This document shows positions 1,519-62,051 of a stretch of DNA of 64,000 nucleotides, piece after piece; position 1 is the stretch's first letter; each line of letters opens with the position of its first letter. Source of the stretch: a virus; the IMG/VR virus record IMGVR_UViG_3300036863_000086, positions 1 to 64,000 of that record, one strand, 5' to 3'. Below the pieces are notes generated by a model. That model made no database searches, was not told the origin of the DNA, and saw nothing but the letters and a program-made list of their open reading frames with translations. Position numbers and translations under genes: made by a program.

Positions 1519-3804
1519 ATGCAGAAGGCTCCCGGCGCGCAATGTGACGAGTGTCCATTGCGCGCCGAACCTTTCGTAGGAACATACGGCCCACTAGACG
1601 CCAAAATCGCTGCAATTGGCGAAGGCCCTGGGCTCCAAGAAGTCGTGTACAAAAAGCCATTCGTCGGAAATTCTGGTAAGCTACTGAAATCAGTCCTGAA
1701 GCACGCTGGGATCGATCCAGAAAAAGAGGTATGGTACACGAATGTCGTCCTCTGCCGACCGCCCGACAATGCAACCCCAACAAAAGAGGCGATTTATTGT
1801 TGCTCGGGGCGGCTTGAAAACGAACTGCAACAAAGGGCACCAGAGAAAATTCTCGCTCTGGGTGGCACTGCCGCAAAAGCGCTGCTTAACACTTCGACTG
1901 GAATCATGGCGCTCCGGCCTGGCCCACCAAGACCGCTGGCTGCGCACAACTGTGAAATTATCCCGACAGTTCACCCGGCAGCATGCCTTCGGAGTGGAGA
2001 CTACTTTCCATTTCTTGTTACCGACATCGGCAAAATCAATTTCGAACCATCAAGCTGGACGCCACCTCGATACCTCGTACCCCACTCGGAAAGGACGGCT
2101 TTATTCGCCATCCGATGGCTCAGCAAATTCAACGAACTCTCAGTAGACATCGAGGTAGCAGTTGAGAAAGACCTGGCATTCGAACACCCATCCAAATACA
2201 GCATTCTCTGCATTGGGATCGCTCCATCAGAGTCTGCTGCGATTGTTCTTCCGAGCAGCGTTCTTTGGTTTCAAACTGTTATTCAAGCTCTTCGAGGGCT
2301 CCTCAAGAAATCGAAGATAATTGCGCAGAACGGGAAGTTCGATATCCCTGGTCTCTCAAGGATCGGGGATTTTGAACTTTACGCAGATACTATGTTAATG
2401 CACTACGCTTCGGATGAGCGTGGTGGAATCCACGGCTTGAAAGTGATGGCTCGTGAGTATCTCGGAGCACCCGACTACAGTGCAAGAATTAAACAATACA
2501 CAAAAGGTTTGGACGGTTTCGCGGGTATACCGCGTGACCTCCTGCATGAATATAATGCCTACGATGCCACACTCACGTTCGGACTATACAGAATTTTTGA
2601 ACGGCAACTACATCATTCAGGTCTGTCCAGTCTGCATGCATTCTTGGTTCAAGCAAGCAATGCCCTAATCCAAGTAGAAACCGAGGGGGTGCTTGTCAAT
2701 GAGGACTATCTGCAAGAACTTGATCGGGACTATCAGGATCGACTTTCGTCACAGGAGAGCGCACTTCAGAAATGGGTACAGAACCCTCGGTCCACTCTTC
2801 AAGTTCGATCCGCTCTCGCTGAACTTGGAGTTGAAACGGCATCAACAGATGTGTCCCATTTGCAGGCTATACACGCATCCATGGGACAATACGAGGGTTC
2901 ACCCGAAGCAGCAGCAGTCAGCGAATTTGTTTCGGCTTTATTAAAATATCGAAAGGACCAGAAGGTACATGGAACCTACATCAAGGGCATCGCCAAAAGG
3001 CTCTACAACGGACGTTGCTATCCTACGTATCTTCTACATGGAACTACCACAGGGCGCCTCTCGTGTAGAAATCCAAACCTTCAGAACATTCCGCGCGGAT
3101 CGGCGATACGCAGACTTTTTGTTGCAAGTCCTGAAAATAGTCTGGTTCAAGCCGATTATAAGCAGGGAGAGCTGCGAGTCATTGCTTGCCTTAGTCGGGA
3201 GCAGTTTCTCGCTGATATTTTCAACGAAAAGCGTGACCTACTCAGCGAAATTGCTCGACGATTCTATGGTCCTAACTTTACAAAAGAGCAGCGAGTAAGA
3301 GCAAAGAACCTCGCGTACGGAAGCTGCTACGGGGCAGAGCCTCTTCGGCTCACAGCATATGAGGGCGTTACCCTTCAAGAAGCTGCTAAGTTTCAATATG
3401 AATTCTTTGAATTCATGCCAAACGTACGACGTTGGCAAGTTGATACACGAGAGCAAGTCTTGAAAGGCAACGACCTCATCACGGCATTCGGGCGCCACCG
3501 ACGGTACACGCTGATCACGAGAGAGAATAAAAAGGATATACTGAATGAATGCCTTGCTTTTGTCCCGCAGAGTACGCTTAGTGATATCTGTTTGTCTAGT
3601 CTTATCCGTCTGGTACATGAGGGGTTTCACCCCCGCATTACTGTCCATGATAGTATTGTGGTTGAGTGCCACAATAGCCAGGTTGCACATACAAGTGAAG
3701 CTCTTTCGCAGATTCTCCCGCAAGTAGCCAAAGAAACTTTCGACGACTATGTTCCATTCCCTGTCGACGTAAAAGCTGGAAGGAGTTGGGGTGACCTTGA
3801 GTGA
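1519..3804 (+). CDS. Uracil-DNA glycosylase (family 4-like) / DNA polymerase I fusion
   Basis: 761 residues in three parts. Residues 1-180 resemble family 4 uracil-DNA glycosylase: a CDEC pair, VVLCRPPDN and a later CC that could complete a 4Fe-4S site, GEGPG near the active site, and HPAAC as the second motif. Residues 210-385 look like a DEDD 3'-5' exonuclease (LSVDIE, AQNGKFDIPGL, YNAYDA). The rest is a family A polymerase: ADYKQGELRVIA (motif A), RVRAKNLAYGSCYG (motif B), VHDSIVVE (motif C). Likely the phage replicative polymerase with built-in uracil recognition. A GAAGGGACA site precedes ATG 1519. Confidence 0.9.
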   Translation: MQKAPGAQCDECPLRAEPFVGTYGPLDAKIAAIGEGPGLQEVVYKKPFVGNSGKLLKSVLKHAGIDPEKEVWYTNVVLCRPPDNATPTKEAIYCCSGRLENELQQRAPEKILALGGTAAKALLNTSTGIMALRPGPPRPLAAHNCEIIPTVHPAACLRSGDYFPFLVTDIGKINFEPSSWTPPRYLVPHSERTALFAIRWLSKFNELSVDIEVAVEKDLAFEHPSKYSILCIGIAPSESAAIVLPSSVLWFQTVIQALRGLLKKSKIIAQNGKFDIPGLSRIGDFELYADTMLMHYASDERGGIHGLKVMAREYLGAPDYSARIKQYTKGLDGFAGIPRDLLHEYNAYDATLTFGLYRIFERQLHHSGLSSLHAFLVQASNALIQVETEGVLVNEDYLQELDRDYQDRLSSQESALQKWVQNPRSTLQVRSALAELGVETASTDVSHLQAIHASMGQYEGSPEAAAVSEFVSALLKYRKDQKVHGTYIKGIAKRLYNGRCYPTYLLHGTTTGRLSCRNPNLQNIPRGSAIRRLFVASPENSLVQADYKQGELRVIACLSREQFLADIFNEKRDLLSEIARRFYGPNFTKEQRVRAKNLAYGSCYGAEPLRLTAYEGVTLQEAAKFQYEFFEFMPNVRRWQVDTREQVLKGNDLITAFGRHRRYTLITRENKKDILNECLAFVPQSTLSDICLSSLIRLVHEGFHPRITVHDSIVVECHNSQVAHTSEALSQILPQVAKETFDDYVPFPVDVKAGRSWGDLE

Positions 3805-4974: not shown

Positions 4975-5070
4975 ATGCCATCCAAGGGGCAAGCCGTACC
5001 CAGCAAGCTCGACGAAGCGACGACTCGACGATATCCGGTCCCAGCCAGACGGAGGGCATATGGTAATTGA
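4975..5070 (+). CDS. Possible 31-aa basic peptide
   Basis: An ATG-to-TGA frame fills the gap before the RuvC-like gene, and its TGA overlaps that gene's TTG start (TTGA). The product is short and Arg/Lys rich. The upstream ribosome site is weak. It may be a translational coupler or chance. Confidence 0.3.
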   Translation: MPSKGQAVPSKLDEATTRRYPVPARRRAYGN

Positions 5071-44148: not shown

Positions 44149-44743
44149 AGCAAAGCCTGGCCGGAGATGAAATCCGTACACTGCGTGCGAGCCATCATAG
44201 AAGTGAAAACCATGGCACCGAGTGCGAGCCATTGGCTGTGTGAATTCCCATTTGCATCGTGCGAGCCATTTAGAACGTGAAATCCAAGCATATCGTGCGA
44301 GCCAAGATAATTGCGAAATCCATCCATCTCGTGCGAGCCAAGGTAATATGTGCAACCCAAATCATGCGTGCGAGTCATTGAGCGAATGCAACCCATCGCC
44401 TAGCGTACGAGCCATTGCTTACTGTGAAACCCAGGTGTAGCGTGCGAGCCAAGGTATGTATGAAACCCAAGCTAAAGGTGCGAGCCAGTATCGTTGGTGC
44501 AACCCCAAGTGTAGCGTGCGAGCCAAGGTAATGTGTGAAACCCAAGTGTAGCGTGCGTTAGCCGCAAGAACGATGAAATCCGTCCATCTCGTGCGAGCCA
44601 AACAGAGCGTGAAATCCAAGTTTACCGTGCGAGCCATTGGATCGTGTGAAGCCCTAAGCAATGGTGCGAGCCGTTATACCCGTGAAAACCAAATGGAGGT
44701 GCGAGTCAAAGATAAAGTGAAGCCCAGAATCAAGGTACGAGCC
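44149..44743 (+). repeat. TIGR array 1 (about 16 dual-spacer units)
   Basis: Unit of 36 nt: box A GTGCGAGCC (9), spacer A (9-10), box B GTGAAACCC or GTGAAATCC (9), spacer B (9). About 16 box A and 16 box B copies; variants GTACGAGCC, GTGCGAGTC, GTGCAACCC. It begins with a decayed box A (GCAAAGCC, 44150-44157) and ends with GTACGAGCC at 44735-44743, just before the tas ribosome site. Spacers differ but some recur (B: AAGTGTAGC twice, AGGTGTAGC once; A: AAGGTAATAT/AAGGTATGT/AAGGTAATGT). This matches TIGR arrays giving 36-nt guide RNAs. Confidence 0.88.
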
Positions 44744-44744
44744 A

Positions 44745-44758
44745 AACTCCAAGGAGTT
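44745..44758 (+). promoter_or_regulatory. Palindrome carrying the tas ribosome-binding site
   Basis: AACTCC-AA-GGAGTT. The right half contains the Shine-Dalgarno AAGGAG for GTG 44762, and the left half, directly abutting the last array box, can pair with it. Processing of the last guide could decide whether the site is free. Confidence 0.5.
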
Positions 44759-44761
44759 GCA

Positions 44762-45592
44762 GTGACGACAACAGAGCAAGGAATTGTCGTTCCAACGTTG
44801 CCAGAGATCGAAACGCTGGAGCGGAAAATTCGCACAACAGCAGCACAGCTTCCGCCAGAGGAAGCACGACTGCTGGTGCTGCTGTACTACCAATTGCAAG
44901 AACACCGGATCGCCACCGGTAACCAGGCAAAAAGCGGTGGTGACAACCCAATCCTGATGCACTATCACCAGCAGCTCTCTTCACTGGAACGCAGCCTACC
45001 GCCGCTGCTCGGCAAATGGGCACAGTCCCAAACTGCTGGACAGTGGTCCCTGTCACAGGTCGGCGTCGGTCCTGTTATGGCCGCAGGTCTGCTCGCGCAT
45101 ATCGACATTGTCAAATTCCCTTCGGTGTCACACCTGTGGTCATTCGCTGGCCAGAACCCACTTGCAAAATGGGGGAAAGGCCAGAAGCGGCCGTGGAACG
45201 CACAACTCAAGGTGCTGGTCTGGAAAATCGGCGACTCATTTGTCAAGCTCAACAAGCACCCTGACTGCTACTACGGTCATATCTACGCGAATCGCAAGGC
45301 GATCGAAGTCTCTCGCAATGAGCACGGTGCGTTTGCGGAGCAGGCAGCAGAGATTCTTGAGGTTCGTAAAATCAAGGACGAGCGGACGCTGTCCTTCTAC
45401 AAGGCCGGCAAGCTGCCACCGGGGCACATCGATATGCGCGCTCGGCGTTACGCTTCCAAGCGGTTCCTCTCACACTATTTCGTCGTTGCGTATGAGGCAG
45501 CGCACGGCGAGCCTGCTCCTCGTCCATATGTAGAAACAGTGCTCGGGCACACCGACATCGACGCACCGCCAAACTGGCCATTGACCAAGTAG
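44762..45592 (+). CDS. tasA: Tas protein, nuclease-less TasA type (Nop / Transposase_20-like)
   Basis: 276 residues from GTG 44762 (AAGGAG six bases upstream). Earlier in-frame starts would translate the array itself and are rejected. Residues 10-110 are helical, probably coiled coil. Residues 110-165 hold the helix-hairpin-helix signature LSQVGVGPVMAAGLLAHIDI, then HLWSFAGQNP, shared by IS110-type Transposase_20 and the Nop domain of box C/D RNP proteins. The C-terminus is basic and ends PPNWPLTK. No RuvC (DEDD) or HNH part is present. In TIGR-Tas systems such proteins bind 36-nt guides with two spacers and recognise DNA; here binding without cutting is predicted. Confidence 0.82.
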   Translation: MTTTEQGIVVPTLPEIETLERKIRTTAAQLPPEEARLLVLLYYQLQEHRIATGNQAKSGGDNPILMHYHQQLSSLERSLPPLLGKWAQSQTAGQWSLSQVGVGPVMAAGLLAHIDIVKFPSVSHLWSFAGQNPLAKWGKGQKRPWNAQLKVLVWKIGDSFVKLNKHPDCYYGHIYANRKAIEVSRNEHGAFAEQAAEILEVRKIKDERTLSFYKAGKLPPGHIDMRARRYASKRFLSHYFVVAYEAAHGEPAPRPYVETVLGHTDIDAPPNWPLTK

Positions 45593-45599
45593 CAATTAA

Positions 45600-46304
45600 T
45601 TACTTGCCAAATGGTGATCGTGAAACCCATATCCTTCGTGCGAGCCAAGAACGTAATGAAACCCAAATCGTAGGTGCGAGCCTCTATAAGGGTGAAACCC
45701 ATAATTCCTGTGCGAGCCATGTCGCGCTGAAACCCGAGCGGTATGTGCGAGCCCGTCTGATCGTGAAACCCATATCATGCGTGCGAGCCATAGCAGCTAT
45801 GAAACCCATGCCCTTTGTGCGAGCCTCTATGAGGGTGAAATCCGCAATCACTGTGCGAGCCACCAGCAAAGTGCAAATCCGTACTTCATGTGCGAGCTAC
45901 AGGTTTTAGTGCAACCCAATATAGTCGTGCGAGCCACTACAGAGGCGAAACCCATACTCCAGGTGCGAGCCATTGCAGTCATGAAACCCATGCCTCTTGT
46001 GCGAGCCACCGTGGTTCGGTGAAATCCGTACGTCGAGTGCAAGCCAAGACGTGTATGAAACCCTGATGTAGCGTGCGAGCCGGAACACAGGTGAAACCCT
46101 ATGGCTCAGTGCGAGCCATACTTTCTGTGAATCCCAATCCATGCGTGCGAGCCATTGTCTTCGTGAAGCCCAAGCATTCAGTGCGAGCCATCAACAGTAA
46201 TGAAACCCAAATTAGGCGTGCGAGTCCAAGCATAGGGTGAAGTCCGTAGCCTTGGTGCGAGCCAAATTCTCAGTGAAACCCATAATGTTCGTGCGTTTTC
46301 ACCC
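45600..46304 (+). repeat. TIGR array 2 (about 18 dual-spacer units)
   Basis: Same 36-nt design as array 1, 18 box A copies, starting eight bases after the tas stop with a decayed box A (TTACTTGCC) and ending with a decayed GTGCGTTTTC followed by ACCCAAAACA. Box B here is mostly GTGAAACCC or ATGAAACCC. Related spacers: A TCTATAAGG/TCTATGAGG; B ATGCCCTTT/ATGCCTCTT. Spacers most often begin with A. Confidence 0.88.
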
Positions 46305-47611: not shown

Positions 47612-49590
47612 AACTTAGCCATTGCTAGCGGTGAAGCCCATGCCTTTTGTGCGAGCCACTAGCCCATGTTAAGCACATACCGTGCGTGCGAGCTATAGGT
47701 AGCTGTGAAGCCCATGTCTTTTGTGCGAGCCACCATCCTAGTTAATAACAAAGTGTACGTGCGAGCCACCACGAGCGTCAAATCCCATAGGGGCCATGCG
47801 AGCCAATAATGCGTGTGAAATCCGTCGACAAAGTGCGAGCCAAGATACTTATGAAACCCGTACCATCTGTGCAAGCCTCTGAATGCGGTTGAAACCATAC
47901 CATCTGTGCGAGCCGTACCCTTAGTGAAATCCTCTTCGGCGGTGCGAGCCACACTCATTTGTGAAACCCCAGTACAACGTGCGAGCTACAAATGGTGTGA
48001 AACCCAAATTTCCCGTGCGAGCCACTCCCCGTTGTGCAAGCCCGAGATGTGAATGCGAGCCATTGAAACGGTAAAATCCAATTCCTTGGTGCGAGCCATT
48101 GAACCCGTAAAATCCGTATCTCTCGTGAAGTCCGGGTTGCATGTGCGAGCCACAAGTTCAGTGAAATCCATGTAGTACGTGCGAGCCACTCCCTGTTGTG
48201 CAACCCGGAGGTGCAGTGCGAGCCACGGCAATGCATGTAACCCAAATTTCCAGTGCGAGCCATATCGTTTGTGCAACCCAATAGAACCGTGCGAGCCATT
48301 GAATCTGAGAAACCCAATTCCTTGGTGCGAGCCATGTTCAGTGCGAAATCCAAGTGCAACGTGCGCGCCAGTCTGCGTGTGAAACCCATACCATGTGTGC
48401 GAGCCATTACAGTGAGTAAAATCCACTATCTTGGTGCGAGTCATTACAGTGAGTGAACCCCAATGGATCTGTGCGAGCCATTATTCCCGTGAAATCCAAT
48501 ATCTCAGTGCGGGCCAAGATGCTTGCGAAACCCATAAAGTCAGTGCGAGCCATTGCCGTCATGAAATCCATTGACTCAGTGCGAGCCATTACTTCCGTGA
48601 AATCCGTACGTAGCGTGCGAGCCATCCCAGTCGTGAAGTCCATAGTTGGTCTGCGAGTCAAGCTAAGCGTGCAACCCAACATGGCCGTGCGAGCCATTGT
48701 CGTCATGAAAACCAGGGTTAACGTGCGAGCCATTGAAACAGTGAAACCAGTCCTTAACGCGCATCCCATTACGTAAGCCAACAGCCGCGTGACATCCATA
48801 CTACTCGTGCGAGCCAGCTCCTAAGTGAAAACCGTACCCCTTGTGCGCACGCCTATAGTGAAACCCTGTTCGATGTGCGAGCCGTTGTTATGGTGAAATC
48901 CCTACCACATGTGCGAGCCAAAGCAATTGTGCAACCCAATGTCGGTCTGCGAGCCAAAAGCAAGGTGAAAACCGTGCCCTATAGTGCGAGCCATGTCTGA
49001 AATGAAATCCACAGGGGTCTGTGCGAGCCACAGGCAATGGTGCAAACCGAAGTCGAAGTGCGAGCCCCGCGCGACAGTGAAATCCATATAAGCGGTGCGA
49101 GCCGTACCATTAGTGAAATCCCATTCGTCCGATGCGAGCCATGCGATATGCGAAACCCATAGCAGGCATGCGAGCCAACGGCAGGGCGAAAACCGTACCC
49201 CATAGTGCGTGCATAAGCCATGTCTTCTCTGAAATCCAGGGATCTCGTGCGGGCCAAGGTGTGTGATGAAACCGACCCCAACGTGCGAGCCATTAGCAAG
49301 GTGAAACCCGTACTCCTGGTGCGAGCCATTACTTCCGTGAAATCCTCCGTCCTTGGTGCGAGCCATCGTCAAGGTGAACTCCATTCCAATTGTGCAAGCC
49401 ATTCAAGCAGTGAAAACCCACCCCAAGAGTGCGAGCCATATTGCGCGTGAAACCCGCCGCCCTTCGTGCGAGCCACATCGTCGGTGAAACCCAAGCATAT
49501 TGTGCGAGCCAACGAGCGTCTGCAATCCATATTGCGGGTGCGAGCCAGTCACAACGTTCAACCCGTGGGCATTGTGCGTCCATCAATCCA
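47612..49590 (+). repeat. TIGR array 3 (about 52 dual-spacer units)
   Basis: About 1.97 kb of 36-nt units, starting with a decayed box A (AACTTAGCC) and ending in a decayed GTGCGTCC followed by ATCAATCCAAAAACA, like the end of array 2. Box A is GTGCGAGCC in most units (also ATGCGAGCC, GTGCGGGCC, CTGCGAGCC); box B is more variable (GTGAAATCC, GTGCAACCC, GTAAAATCC, ATGAAATCC). A few positions are irregular (double box B near 48113-48132, decayed units near 48760-48785 and 48843-48852). Repeated spacers include A ATTACTTCC twice with different B partners and B AATTCCTTG twice. Confidence 0.88.
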
Positions 49591-49996: not shown

Positions 49997-50734
49997 ATGG
50001 TCGTTGCTGCCAGAAATTGGGAGACGAATGCTGCCTTCTGGATTCGTATCATTCGAGAAAGGCTTGATCCCTACCGCACAGAACTGACTGATGATGCCGT
50101 GCTCAACGAGGTTGGTCCTGCCGAGGGACGGAGAATTCTCGATGCAGGCTGCGGTGAGGGATATATGTCGCGGCTGCTCGCACATCGAGGTGCCAGTGTT
50201 GTAGGAATCGATTCTTGCCAAGCATTGGTTCATGCAGCCCAAGATCACACCACAGAAGGTTTGAGTATTAGCTACGAGGTGGGCGACGTTGGAGCACTGC
50301 CACTAGCTAATACTCAATTCGATATTATCGTATGCAATCACCTCATCAACGACCTTCCCGATCCAGCTATCCCGTTCCAAGAGTTTGCTCGCGTCCTAAA
50401 ACCACGCGGGCGGCTTGTTATCCTTATGCTTCACCCGTGCTTCTCTATCCCCAGATCGACGGAACAGCGATCCAATGGAGGACTGATCAGTTCGGAGTAC
50501 TTTAGGGTGCGACGGATTGAAAAGCACTTCGAAATTGGCGGGGTTACATCGCCCACAACGGTCGTTGTATGGATAAGATCCATAGAGTCTTATAGTGAGC
50601 TGTTGTTCGGTGCCGGCTTCACTATAACTGGACTGCAAGAGCCACGCCCAACAGAGCAGTTACTGCAAGACCCTTGGTGGCGTGTGAGCTTCTCCCAACC
50701 TCGTTTTTTGTTGATAACTGCCAAGAGACGTTGA
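49997..50734 (+). CDS. Class I SAM-dependent methyltransferase
   Basis: 245 residues. RRILDAGCGEGYMSRLL is the SAM-binding motif I, followed by VVGIDSC (motif II acid), DVGALPLANTQFDIIVC (motifs III/IV) and RVLKPRGRLVI. The C-terminus resembles UbiE/Trm9-type methyltransferases acting on small molecules or tRNA. No DNA-methylase motif (DPPY or NPPF) is seen. Bracketed by two paralogous genes. Confidence 0.85.
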   Translation: MVVAARNWETNAAFWIRIIRERLDPYRTELTDDAVLNEVGPAEGRRILDAGCGEGYMSRLLAHRGASVVGIDSCQALVHAAQDHTTEGLSISYEVGDVGALPLANTQFDIIVCNHLINDLPDPAIPFQEFARVLKPRGRLVILMLHPCFSIPRSTEQRSNGGLISSEYFRVRRIEKHFEIGGVTSPTTVVVWIRSIESYSELLFGAGFTITGLQEPRPTEQLLQDPWWRVSFSQPRFLLITAKRR

Positions 50735-52506: not shown

Positions 52507-52965
52507 TTACGAGAGCTGATCGTGGTGTGTCTCGTATGGGCAGCTCGAGTCTTGTATGCAGTCTGTTCCTCTTGGGCAACATACGCCGTTTCGGCAACAT
52601 AGCTTGTCTCGGATACTTGCGCGGTATACACGCTCTCGTGCTGATATGTCTGATAACTTCACAATATCGTATGTGGAGAGATCGTACCAAAGGTTCAACC
52701 AGCGCTCTCTGCGCCACTTGCTCTCATTGCCTGGATGACGAAACTTTTCAGGTTCGTGCGTATCTTCCGCTAAGTTCGCATCGCGCAGCCAATCAGAAAA
52801 GACTATATAGTGCCATTTCTGAGGGCTGCTACGTTTGCTAGGATTGGGAAACATACCCCTTCTGCGCCAGTCTCGGAGGGTATAGTCGCTTATGCAAAGA
52901 GCGTCGCATATGTCATCAATTGTGAGGAATGTGTTGCCAACGCGCTCTGGCTCTTTTGCGAACAT
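52507..52965 (-). CDS. HTH (MerR/excisionase-like) DNA-binding protein
   Basis: 152 residues. TFLTIDDICDALCISDYTLRD then WRRRGMFPNPSKR is a winged HTH like MerR or phage Xis/AlpA proteins. The C-terminus is unusual: CCRNGVCCPRGTDC and SSCPYETHH supply seven Cys. It is the only leftward gene in the right arm and faces a large AT-rich region with paired repeats just upstream, suggesting autoregulation. Confidence 0.65.
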   Translation of the reverse strand: MFAKEPERVGNTFLTIDDICDALCISDYTLRDWRRRGMFPNPSKRSSPQKWHYIVFSDWLRDANLAEDTHEPEKFRHPGNESKWRRERWLNLWYDLSTYDIVKLSDISARERVYRASIRDKLCCRNGVCCPRGTDCIQDSSCPYETHHDQLS

Positions 52966-60398: not shown

Positions 60399-60442
60399 CC
60401 AACGAAAAACCCGCCAACTTACTTTTGGAAGATCCGAGTATC

Positions 60443-60637
60443 GTGCAATTAATTGGGAACAGTAACGGCGAGAATCACGATAGCTGAGAGCCCGTAAAAG
60501 GGAATATACCAATATCGTGATTAGGGCACGATCGCCCTGGGCCGGTCGGTTCAATCCGGCTGGATCGCAACCAAACAGCGGAAGAACAGAGCCAGCTTAA
60601 CCGCTGGCATCCGGTTACTGTTCCCAATTGATTGTAC
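60443..60637 (+). ncRNA. Inverted-repeat cassette 10 (non-coding, putative structured RNA)
   Basis: Arms 60443-60466 and 60614-60637, 22 of 24 complementary. The 147-base interior has no gene but stacks of hairpins: AATCACGATA/TATCGTGATT, GGGC/GCCC, GCCGG/CCGGC and GCCAGC/GCTGGC. Confidence 0.65.
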
Positions 60638-60649
60638 GACAAATTAGAA

Positions 60650-60749
60650 TTGAGATAGGGAACGCACCCGGACGGCATAACCCTGCTAGGTTTGCTAAGG
60701 GTCCGCCGTAGCAGCGGAAACGGGATATAGAGGGACCGCCCTATCTCAA
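60650..60749 (+). ncRNA. Cassette 11: putative structured RNA
   Basis: Perfect 11-bp terminal stem (TTGAGATAGGG/CCCTATCTCAA) enclosing 78 bases with an inner ACCCT/AGGGT stem. No coding potential. Confidence 0.55.
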
Positions 60750-60865
60750 AACCACGCGCCTAGCTGCAAAACGGCCTCGGGCCGGATCTGGTTCTCAGCG
60801 TGGGTTCTAGGGAAGCACGAATAGGAGCTGGTAATAAGGCTTCCCAGCTAACTTTCGCAGGATCT
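60750..60865. other. Spacer with a short hairpin
   Basis: No gene. GGGAAGC and GCTTCCC (near 60810-60845) can pair around 22 bases, another small stem between cassettes 11 and 12. Confidence 0.35.
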
Positions 60866-60947
60866 AAGGACCACAGGGATGCAGGTCTACAACCGCATTT
60901 CGACAAAACCCAAATGGTGAGGTTTCGTCGTTATCCCTGTGGTCCTT
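60866..60947 (+). ncRNA. Cassette 12: putative structured RNA
   Basis: Perfect 15-bp terminal stem (AAGGACCACAGGGAT and complement at 60933-60947); inside, CGACAAAACC pairs with GGTTTCGTCG (9 of 10). Only 52 bases between the arms. Confidence 0.6.
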
Positions 60948-60983
60948 TGATTCTACGACGAGACAACGAACAAGGGTAAACAG

Positions 60984-61196
60984 ATGGATTTCTACCCGAT
61001 TTGGGGAGAACGGCTTTATGAGTCGTCCGATGGACGATACCGGCTTTCCAGAGATTCTCATGGGCGCTGGTGGATTCTCCGCGTCCGGCAGTTCAACTCC
61101 GGTCCAAAGACGATGCTGGTTCCCTATTCGTTCCGAACGCTCGATAACGCAATCGAAGCGTTCGATGATGGAACCGTCAAAATTTGGGAACGATGA
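60984..61196 (+). CDS. Small hypothetical protein (70 aa)
   Basis: Trp/Tyr/Arg-rich beta protein (YRLSRDSHGRWWILRVRQF). Weak ribosome site AAGGG 12 bases upstream. Ends eight bases before tRNA-Arg. Confidence 0.55.
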   Translation: MDFYPIWGERLYESSDGRYRLSRDSHGRWWILRVRQFNSGPKTMLVPYSFRTLDNAIEAFDDGTVKIWER

Positions 61197-61203
61197 CTCT
61201 GCG

Positions 61204-61275
61204 GCGCCTGTACCTTAATGGAAAGAGGGATAGTTTCCTAAACTATTTGTGCAGGTTCGATTCCTGCCAGGCGCG
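61204..61275 (+). tRNA. tRNA-Arg (anticodon CCT)
   Basis: 72 nt; acceptor GCGCCTG/CAGGCGC, anticodon stem ATAGT/ACTAT with loop TTCCTAA, T arm GCAGG/CCTGC around TTCGATT. Reads AGG codons. Confidence 0.9.
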
Positions 61276-61276
61276 C

Positions 61277-61419
61277 AAGAAACTTGGGCTAGCCGCGTAC
61301 TCCACTACGGTAATGGGAGAGCTATACGAAAGTGCCCGGCAACCTGAAAGCGCCTTACGGTGTATCCACCTTACGGTGCATCCATGTCGACGCCGGTAAG
61401 CCTTCCGCCCAAGTTTCTT
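61277..61419 (+). ncRNA. Cassette 13: putative structured RNA between tRNAs
   Basis: A perfect 13-bp terminal stem (AAGAAACTTGGGC with 61407-61419) encloses 117 bases with no gene, including a repeated CCTTACGGTG..TCCA element (two copies about 20 bases apart). It fills the space between tRNA-Arg and tRNA-His. Confidence 0.6.
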
Positions 61420-61425
61420 TTTCAT

Positions 61426-61500
61426 GGCGAGAGTAGCTTAATTAGGTAAAGCGCTTGCTTGTGGCGCAAGTTATTGCCGGTTCAAATCCGGTCTCTCGCC
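61426..61500 (+). tRNA. tRNA-His (anticodon GTG)
   Basis: 75 nt including the extra 5' G(-1) that pairs with C73, a hallmark of tRNA-His. Acceptor GCGAGAG/CTCTCGC, anticodon stem CTTGC/GCAAG, loop TTGTGGC, T arm around TTCAAAT. Confidence 0.92.
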
Positions 61501-61504
61501 CCAA

Positions 61505-61582
61505 TGGTCGGTAGCTTAATTCACTCGGCAAAGCAGCGGTCTCCAAAACCGCGAGATGGGGGTTCGAGTCCCTTCCGACCAG
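61505..61582 (+). tRNA. tRNA-Trp (anticodon CCA)
   Basis: Acceptor TGGTCGG/CCGACCA, anticodon stem GCGGT/ACCGC, loop CTCCAAA, T loop TTCGAGT. U1-A72 is unusual but paired. Confidence 0.9.
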
Positions 61583-61586
61583 CTAC

Positions 61587-61661
61587 GGCGTGGTAGCTCA
61601 GTTTGGTTAGAGTGCTGCCCTGTCAAGGCAGAGGTCGCGGGTCCAAATCCCGTCCACGCCG
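61587..61661 (+). tRNA. tRNA-Asp (anticodon GTC)
   Basis: Acceptor GGCGTGG/CCACGCC, anticodon stem CTGCC/GGCAG, loop CTGTCAA, T loop TCCAAAT, discriminator G typical of tRNA-Asp. Confidence 0.93.
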
Positions 61662-61684
61662 CAATTGTGGGGAAAGGACAATCA

Positions 61685-61876
61685 GTGTCAAAGCTAAAAG
61701 TTACTGTAACTGGAATTCTAGATGTTCCAGAAGATCAGCTAGAACCGGCATACGAAGCATCCTCAATCCAAGAAGCCGCCAAAAACTTAGTCGCCTGGTA
61801 TAAAGATGGCTCAGCAGACCTTTTTGCTGACCTATCCGTGGTGGATGAGTTGAAGGTAACTGTCGAGCCGGTATAA
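61685..61876 (+). CDS. Small hypothetical protein (63 aa)
   Basis: GTG 61685 with AAAGGA seven bases upstream; upstream in-frame codons are tRNA sequence. Acidic beta-alpha protein (KVTVTGILDVPEDQLEPAYE). Embedded in the tRNA cluster. Confidence 0.55.
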   Translation: MSKLKVTVTGILDVPEDQLEPAYEASSIQEAAKNLVAWYKDGSADLFADLSVVDELKVTVEPV

Positions 61877-61878
61877 TT

Positions 61879-61975
61879 CGGAGTTGCCAGACCCGAGTCT
61901 CCATACCTGCGTACGAGGATTTCTGGAGATAAGCCGAAAACCTAAAGCGCTACGGGAAAGTAGGCATCTGGCACC
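61879..61975 (+). ncRNA. Putative three-way-junction RNA in tRNA cluster
   Basis: TGCCAGA (61885-61891) pairs with TCTGGCA (61967-61973); inside, TCTCCA/TGGAGA encloses CCT/AGG, and GCTAC/GTAGGC forms a third helix. Junction strands are purine rich (GATAAGCCGAAAACC). Not a tRNA; no known riboswitch or ribozyme could be matched with confidence. Confidence 0.5.
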
Positions 61976-61977
61976 AA

Positions 61978-62051
61978 GCGCCATTCTGCTAAACGGATGA
62001 GGCTACCACTCTCTCACGGTGGAGGTAGGAGTTCGAATCTCCTATGGCGCG
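61978..62051 (+). tRNA. tRNA-Glu (anticodon CTC)
   Basis: Acceptor GCGCCAT/ATGGCGC, anticodon stem CCACT/GGTGG, loop CTCTCAC, T arm AGGAG/CTCCT around TTCGAAT. Discriminator G. Confidence 0.85.

What the first reader, a model, noticed from the sequence alone, without database searches (positions are those of the whole stretch)
44762..45592. Nuclease-less Tas protein: guide-directed binding without cutting
The 276-residue protein has a helical N-terminus and an HhH/Nop-like core, but I see neither the DEDD of a RuvC part nor an HNH motif. With some 90 guides this suggests a repressor-like or blocking role, or recruitment of a host or phage nuclease such as the RuvC-like protein at 5067.
Basis: partly seen in the sequence, partly recalled or inferred. 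Interest (0 to 1): 0.75.

Follow-up and report, generated by a model that had tools for sequence, protein, structure and literature searches.

The report
Phage TasA protein with guide arrays
This phage carries a nuclease-free member of the recently described TIGR-Tas family of RNA-guided DNA-binding proteins, together with an unusually large store of about 90 guides in the window; its targets are still unknown.

Summary
The protein at 44762-45592 (276 aa, GTG start behind AAGGAG) is a solo-Nop TIGR-Tas effector, the published class TasA. NCBIfam's TIGR-Tas model matches at 170.7 bits (cut-off 100). The AlphaFold2 model is all-helical and aligns to TasH from about residue 65 and to TasR from residue 112, so no nuclease part is left. 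Three dual-repeat array blocks flank it: 90 loop and 87 edge repeats, about 36 nt per unit. About 37 further units lie beyond the window in the same 72.5-kb record. Of 80 relatives kept, 72 carry such an array near tas (median 18 units, maximum 57). Non-cutting, guide-directed DNA binding was already proposed for TasA, so this is a new member of a known kind. Recruitment of the RuvC-like protein at 5067 has no support; it resembles ordinary actinophage resolvases. I found no excess of targets in the phage's own record, in 1.4 Mb of TasA-phage DNA, or for six guides in 90 genomes. In a sister clade TasA hardly changes (0-1 amino-acid differences) while most guides differ, which fits interference between mobile elements better than fixed gene regulation. 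Blocking is inferred, not shown.

The parts
44762..45592 (+). tasA: solo-Nop TIGR-Tas effector, 276 aa, GTG start
   Evidence: NCBIfam NF052498 170.7 bits against cut-off 100; PDB TasR 9mty E 1.2e-16 and TasH 21kl E 1.5e-12 by sequence; AF2 model matching TasH Z 19.1 and TasR Z 18.0
44751..44756 (+). ribosome-binding site AAGGAG, 5 nt before the GTG start
   Evidence: read directly from the sequence
44168..44744 (+). TIGR array block I, 16 edge (TGCGAGCCA) and 16 loop (TGAAACCCA) repeats, directly upstream of tasA
   Evidence: dynamic-programming parse
45601..46295 (+). TIGR array block II, 19 edge and 19 loop repeats, ending in a truncated edge repeat GTGCG (46291-46295)
47617..49578 (+). TIGR array block III, 52 edge and 55 loop repeats, beginning with a truncated edge AGCCA (47617-47621) and ending with a truncated edge GTGCG (49574-49578)

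Best explanation
This is a TIGR-TasA system of a tailed phage. The arrays are transcribed and cut in the middle of the edge repeats into ~36-nt tigRNAs (AGCCA-spacer A-GTGAAACCCA-spacer B-GTGCG). A TasA dimer binds one tigRNA; spacers A and B pair with opposite strands of adjacent ~8-9 bp halves of a DNA target, melting and sharply bending it. Having no nuclease domain, TasA cannot cut and instead blocks transcription or replication at the site. The most likely targets are competing mobile elements, not the phage's own genes. Shown here: protein family and fold, absence of a nuclease part, array anatomy, and (in sister clades) conserved TasA with fast guide turnover. Inferred from published TasR/TasH/TasA work: processing, dimerisation, two-strand pairing, bending. 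Inferred only: blocking as the effect, and competing elements as the targets.
For: Family: NF052498 TIGR_Tas_endo 170.7 bits against 100, and all 14 members of an alignment (this protein included) match it. Fold: Foldseek's ten matches with E<=0.001 are all TasH or TasR chains; VIA Z 19.1 over 221 residues to TasH 66-309 and Z 18.0 over 193 residues to TasR 112-322. Relatives in IMG/VR: 259 of 290 candidate stretches confirmed, best 80 kept; their ORFs are mostly 265-320 aa, and 72 of 80 have an array of at least 8 repeats within 1.5 kb. Guide turnover: L024 and L025 have no amino-acid difference in the compared TasA (14 synonymous changes) and 95.5% identical aligned backbone, yet share 5 of 12 units of the smaller array; L024 and L027 differ by 1 amino acid and share 2 of 25; L024 and L029 differ by none and share 5 of 24. 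No self-targets: 0 sites with 0 or 1 mismatch for 114 guides. TasA binding 36-nt tigRNA, and tandem-spacer DNA targeting by TasR/TasH, are published (PMC12045711, parts 1-5 of 12 read).
Against: No target was identified anywhere: none above chance in 1.41 Mb of TasA-phage DNA, and five of six guides of a Halomonas provirus match nothing in 90 genomes of its genus. The sixth matches 8 of 90, own genome included, with differing gaps. Guide turnover was measured in a sister clade, not in this phage, which has no close relative in hand (best near-full-length match 49% identity). One guide (GGAGTATC/AGCACGCG) is kept in all four L024-group arrays, which a fixed regulatory role could also produce. 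In the paper, TasR in E. coli reduced neither conjugation nor phage plaquing.
Confidence: 0.6

Rival explanations
1. TasA is a guide-directed regulator of the phage's own genes or of fixed host genes, a programmable repressor used in the infection cycle.
For: Non-cutting binding would suit repression. TasA is under purifying selection in relatives (dN/dS 0-0.27 in nine pairs). One guide is kept in all four L024-group arrays.
Against: No dual-spacer match with 0 or 1 mismatch in the phage's own 67,609 unmasked bases for 114 guides, and 2- and 3-mismatch counts at or below shuffled pairs. Most guides differ between phages with near-identical TasA, unlike a fixed regulon.
Confidence: 0.15
2. TasA recruits a separate nuclease, for example the RuvC-like protein at 5067, so targets are cut in trans.
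For: The product at 5067 keeps RuvC-type acidic positions (IDPG, CERF, RDA; sequence, meaning of the motif recalled). In TasR a RuvC domain is fused to the same Nop core (PMC12045711).
Against: The resolvase-like gene lies about 40 kb away and is found in actinophages without a detected Tas. No nuclease recurs beside tas in 72 relatives beyond three RecE-like/YqaJ hits among 135 ORFs. The paper reports no clear protein associations for TasA apart from an occasional ParB-like partner.
Confidence: 0.06
3. TasA helps a phage recombinase: RNA-guided bending of DNA marks integration or recombination sites (a suggestion made in the TIGR-Tas paper).
For: TasA is expected to bend DNA as TasR does (inference made in the paper). 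Replication and recombination genes are among the commonest neighbours of tas in relatives (RecE/YqaJ 3, primase/helicase types 2-3 each, of 135 ORFs).
Against: Only 1 of 135 flanking ORFs matches Phage_integrase. A store of ~125 fast-changing guides is not what a single attachment site needs. In this window I found only a weak excisionase-like match (52507-52965), but not all ORFs were scanned.
Confidence: 0.07
4. TasA with its guides works on RNA like a box C/D snoRNP and recruits a methyltransferase, such as the SAM methyltransferase encoded after array III (49997-50734).
For: Nop-domain proteins of box C/D RNPs recruit the methyltransferase fibrillarin (established knowledge, also in the paper). 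A Methyltransf_11 protein (E 8.5e-23) follows the third array.
Against: The methyltransferase's best matches are UbiE/Methyltransf_11-type, not fibrillarin. No methyltransferase recurs among the listed neighbour families in relatives. TasR did not act on RNA substrates (paper).
Confidence: 0.03

Closest known systems
TIGR-TasA (solo-Nop Tas protein; Faure et al. 2025, PMC12045711)
   Same: Solo Nop protein beside dual-repeat arrays with 36-nt units, box D (TG) and box C (CCA) in both repeats, truncated edge repeats at array ends, phage-borne.
   Different: About 90 units in the window and about 125 in the record, against 'most often 5 to 15' in the paper; three small extra arrays beyond the window are clamped by inverted repeats.
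TIGR-TasH (e.g. Salicola phage CGphi29)
   Same: Homologous Nop core (Z 19.1 over 221 residues); similar GCGAGCC edge repeat.
   Different: TasH has an N-terminal HNH nuclease in the residues before ~65, which this protein lacks.
TIGR-TasR
   Same: Homologous Nop core (E 1.2e-16 by sequence, Z 18.0 by fold).
   Different: TasR has an N-terminal RuvC nuclease (residues before ~112 not matched here).
IS110-family RNA-guided recombinase (IS621, ISCro4)
   Same: Related RNA-binding core (Z 13.2-13.6).
   Different: NCBIfam IS110 model only 15.1 bits against cut-off 140; no N-terminal DEDD part.
[quoted passage not shown]
   Same: Work-alike: interfere with mobile elements by binding without cutting (comparison made in the TIGR-Tas paper).
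   Different: Unrelated protein and guide architecture; resemblance of proposed effect only.

Membership tests
TIGR-Tas | Tas-type Nop-domain protein | tested here: met
   NF052498 170.7 bits against 100; TasH/TasR best in PDB by sequence and fold
TIGR-Tas | adjacent array of two alternating short repeats with ~8-10 nt spacers, ~36 nt per unit | tested here: met
   90 loop and 87 edge repeats; 82 of 87 loop-to-loop distances are 35-38 nt
TIGR-Tas | matching box C/box D motifs in edge and loop repeats, truncated edges at array ends | tested here: met
   TG...CCA in both consensus repeats; AGCCA at the start and GTGCG at the end of array III, GTGCG at the end of array II
TIGR-Tas | array RNA processed to 36-nt tigRNAs bound by the protein | not testable with these tools
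   needs small-RNA sequencing of the complex
TIGR-Tas | spacers A and B pair with opposite strands of one DNA target | tested here: inconclusive
   no target above chance in the sequences searched
TasA subclass | Nop domain alone, no nuclease domain | tested here: met
   no nuclease family in Pfam at E<=1; all-helical model; alignments start after TasH/TasR nuclease parts
TasH | N-terminal HNH domain | tested here: not met
TasR | N-terminal RuvC domain | tested here: not met
IS110 recombinase | full-length IS110 family match | tested here: not met
   NF033542 15.1 bits against cut-off 140
TasA-TasParB operon | parB-like gene in operon with tasA | tested here: not met
   no ParB family in the ten nearby window ORFs scanned against Pfam at E<=0.01
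box C/D snoRNP Nop protein | Nop5/Nop56/58-type fold match | tested here: inconclusive
   no Nop5/Prp31 chain among the listed fold matches; absence is not evidence

The most novel reading that the evidence does not exclude
TasA arrays are phage-borne, nuclease-free interference arsenals that behave like a CRISPRi analogue: the effector is frozen by purifying selection while the guide store turns over quickly through gain, loss, block movement and re-pairing of spacer halves, so phages with the same TasA carry largely different guide sets against competing mobile elements. In this phage the store has grown to ~125 guides, and small sets sit in hairpin-clamped cassettes in a tRNA-rich region that bridge the two published array architectures.
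Probability: 0.4. Interest if true: 0.75.

Novelty: new member of a known kind. Interest (0 to 1): 0.42.

Why it matters
TasA is reported as the commonest TIGR effector, but its function and how its arrays grow are open questions (PMC12045711). This locus shows how large such a store can become. The sister-clade comparison (same TasA, different guides) gives a testable sign of an arms race and names groups of phages in which to look for targets. It also corrects a naming trap: NCBI's model calls this family an endonuclease, although members such as this one have no nuclease part.

Tried and rejected
Hidden nuclease: looked for by Pfam, AlphaFold2 and two structure comparisons; none found. VIA-align marks model residues outside 25-103 as barely tested across its rows, but the TasH/TasR rows span residues ~29-275.

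Self-targeting: 80-guide test (the array parts of the record's end were not masked there), then 114 guides with arrays masked. Geometry spacer A + reverse complement of B, gaps 0-2: 0, 0, 1, 13 sites at 0, 1, 2, 3 mismatches against shuffled-pair means 0, 0, 1.6, 18.5. The other geometry: 0, 0, 2, 17 against 0.1, 0.1, 2.1, 19. Single 8-mer counts were near column-shuffled expectation except spacer A on the top strand (138 against 107.7, sd 12.3), not followed up.

Cross-targeting among TasA phages: 2,403 distinct guides of both reading phases against 1.41 Mb; observed and shuffled counts are alike at nearly all gaps (e.g. 5, 3, 1 against 2.6, 1.2, 3.0 at the three gaps that fit the published rule; the largest departure is 9 against 3.0 at one gap of the other geometry).

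Halomonas NO4 provirus (L093): six of its seven guides against 90 genomes of the genus; five had no match. One GC-rich guide matched 8 of 90 genomes, own genome included, with gaps of 0, 1 and 2; the tool's reversed-pattern control gave 0. I read this as chance in GC-rich coding DNA, from an expectation of a few hits that I estimated by hand, so it stays unexplained in part.

A pair of near-identical guides of a Propionivibrio provirus: no match in three host genomes.

Guide kept in all four L024-group arrays, scanned over IMG/VR in both geometries: 13 and 24 contigs. In the second geometry 20 of 24 hits have gap 0 and several seem to encode an R-V-L-E-Y stretch (read by eye), so codon use explains them as well as targeting does.

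Which geometry is right was deduced from the paper's '8-nt 3' overhangs' and its C-5 rule; one sentence of the paper on the cut side conflicts with this, so both were tried.

Spacer families inside this array: near-identical spacers exceed a column shuffle (<=1 mismatch: A 16 pairs against 4.0, B 19 against 4.2), but halves A and B do not vary together (r = 0.026). The shuffle ignores neighbour-base bias, so part of the excess may be composition.

Array detection in relatives drops chains under 4 repeats and mis-parses some loci; L074 and L086 gave only chains away from tas, and L026, L048, L058, L064, L087, L092 gave none. In one search I left out 11 relatives with doubtful parses. Eight near-duplicate loci were skipped before the neighbour count.

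Two scans with the single protein found nothing. No match in PLSDB plasmids or PADLOC. The promoter/terminator scan found nothing above shuffles.

Full report
What is there. The open frame 44762-45592 on the + strand encodes 276 aa, begins with GTG behind AAGGAG (44751-44756), and is flanked on both sides by repeat arrays on the same strand. The window is positions 1-64000 of a 72,476-bp virus record.

Protein. NCBIfam model NF052498 'TIGR-Tas system RNA-guided endonuclease' matches residues 35-243 at 170.7 bits (cut-off 100); the IS110 model reaches only 15.1 of 140 bits. PHROG 4285 matches at 3.5e-42; Pfam gives only a weak Transposase_20 match. By sequence the best PDB chains are 9mty (E 1.2e-16, the TasR complex) and 21kl (E 1.5e-12, TasH). 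An AlphaFold2 model from an alignment of nine sequences has mean pLDDT 85.7 and pTM 0.80 and is helical. Foldseek's ten matches at E<=0.001 are all TasH or TasR. VIA-align gives Z 19.1 (rmsd 3.0, 221 residues) against TasH residues 66-309 and Z 18.0 (rmsd 2.1, 193 residues) against TasR 112-322; IS621/ISCro4 follow at Z 13.2-13.6. The protein is therefore the Nop part alone: TasA in the nomenclature of Faure et al. 2025 (PMC12045711; I read parts 1-5 of 12 and two sets of passages). The NCBI name 'endonuclease' does not fit this member.

Arrays. Three blocks hold 90 loop repeats (consensus TGAAACCCA) and 87 edge repeats (TGCGAGCCA), preceded by G in 148 of 177 cases; 82 of 87 loop-to-loop distances are 35-38 nt. 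Blocks II and III end in a truncated edge repeat GTGCG and block III begins with AGCCA, as the paper describes for TIGR arrays. The record continues beyond the window with 74 more repeats, so about 125 units in all. The paper gives 'most often 5 to 15'.

Relatives. A profile scan of IMG/VR confirmed 259 of 290 candidate stretches; the best 80 were kept, at 39-57% identity. Their ORFs are mostly 265-320 aa; longer calls mostly reflect start choice upstream. Seventy-two of 80 have a chain of at least 8 repeats within 1.5 kb of tas; median 18 units, maximum 57. Flanks were limited to 10 kb, so distant blocks are missed there, while this phage has a large block about 22 kb downstream of tasA. Eight loci in the genome collection carry relatives, among them Halomonas sp. 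NO4, Acidobacteriaceae KBS 96 and Ca. Propionivibrio aalborgensis.

Function, tests against targets. If TasA regulated its own phage, dual-spacer sites should exist in the record. For 114 clean guides and 67,609 unmasked bases there is no site with 0 or 1 mismatch in the geometry deduced from the paper, and none in excess with 2 or 3. Across 2,403 guides and 1.41 Mb of TasA-phage DNA the counts resemble shuffled pairs. Six of seven Halomonas provirus guides were searched in 90 genomes of the genus; five found nothing and one GC-rich guide matched 8 of 90 with mixed gaps. The targets remain unknown.

Function, evidence from turnover. In the sister group L024/L025/L027/L029 the aligned backbone is 92.7-96.7% identical. 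TasA differs by 0 or 1 amino acids against 14-18 synonymous changes in the three pairs measured, all with L024. Yet the arrays (47, 13, 26 and 25 units) share few units with both halves alike (<=1 mismatch each): L024-L025 5, L024-L027 2, L024-L029 5, L025-L027 1, L025-L029 2, L027-L029 10. Blocks move, and one half can be kept with a new partner. One guide is kept in all four. In six other pairs dN/dS is 0.04-0.27, and of 31 in-register, non-identical half-units 19 differ by only 1-2 of 8 bases, so point change also contributes. A conserved effector with a fast-changing guide store fits interference between mobile elements better than a fixed regulon. This inference is from sister clades; no close relative of the window phage was found.

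Partners. The RuvC-like protein at 5067 (162 aa) lies near the family A DNA polymerase; its relatives in 18 phage records belong to Arthrobacter and Microbacterium phages (15 rows listed, annotated RuvC or RuvC-like resolvase). No phage record is shared with the three that bear a Tas-like protein. Of 135 ORFs flanking tas in 72 relatives the commonest families are RecE/YqaJ (3) and primase/helicase types (2-3); one is an integrase, and no ParB is among the listed families (25 of 129 PHROG and 25 of 44 Pfam families shown). Ten nearby window ORFs show no ParB. TasA most likely acts alone.

Verdict. Blocking without cutting is the best explanation but is the paper's own suggestion and remains untested. 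In the library searched, TIGR-Tas or tigRNA terms led to one primary paper, with reviews and passing mentions besides (search listings; of these I read only PMC12045711). 2026 TasH structures are in the PDB copy, but these searches listed no paper on them.

Noticed in passing
L004 4719-4782, 4852-5101, 8135-8255 (record 68719-68782, 68852-69101, 72135-72255, beyond the window): Three small arrays of 1, about 6 and about 2 units are each enclosed by perfect 11-12 bp inverted repeats placed at or near the half edge repeats, a form between the two published array architectures. The four large blocks of the record show at most 6 bp; in 100 blocks of relatives 4 reach 9 bp or more against about 1.2 with shuffled flanks.
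   Followed up: partly
window 60400-62000 and L004 1297-1440, 4790-4845: A region rich in tRNA genes (13 in the whole record by Rfam) and long hairpins; two hairpin elements near 61285-61420 and L004 1297-1440 share motifs by eye (e.g. GCCCGG, CGGTAAGCCT). Rfam finds only tRNAs.
   Followed up: no
window 1519-3804: One protein joins a uracil-DNA-glycosylase superfamily domain, a 3'-5' exonuclease and a family A DNA polymerase.
   Followed up: no
window 49997-50734: A SAM-dependent methyltransferase (Methyltransf_11, E 8.5e-23) lies about 420 bp after array III.
   Followed up: partly
L095 9743-9960 (Ca. Propionivibrio aalborgensis): Two guides in one array share spacer B exactly and differ by one base in spacer A (GAAATAAC/GAAGTAAC with CACTGGTA), as if covering a variant of one target or freshly duplicated.
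   Followed up: partly
NCBIfam NF052498 (protein 44762-45592): The family is named 'RNA-guided endonuclease', but its 215-position profile covers the Nop part and matches nuclease-free TasA proteins (14 of 14 alignment members), so automatic annotation will mislabel them.
   Followed up: yes
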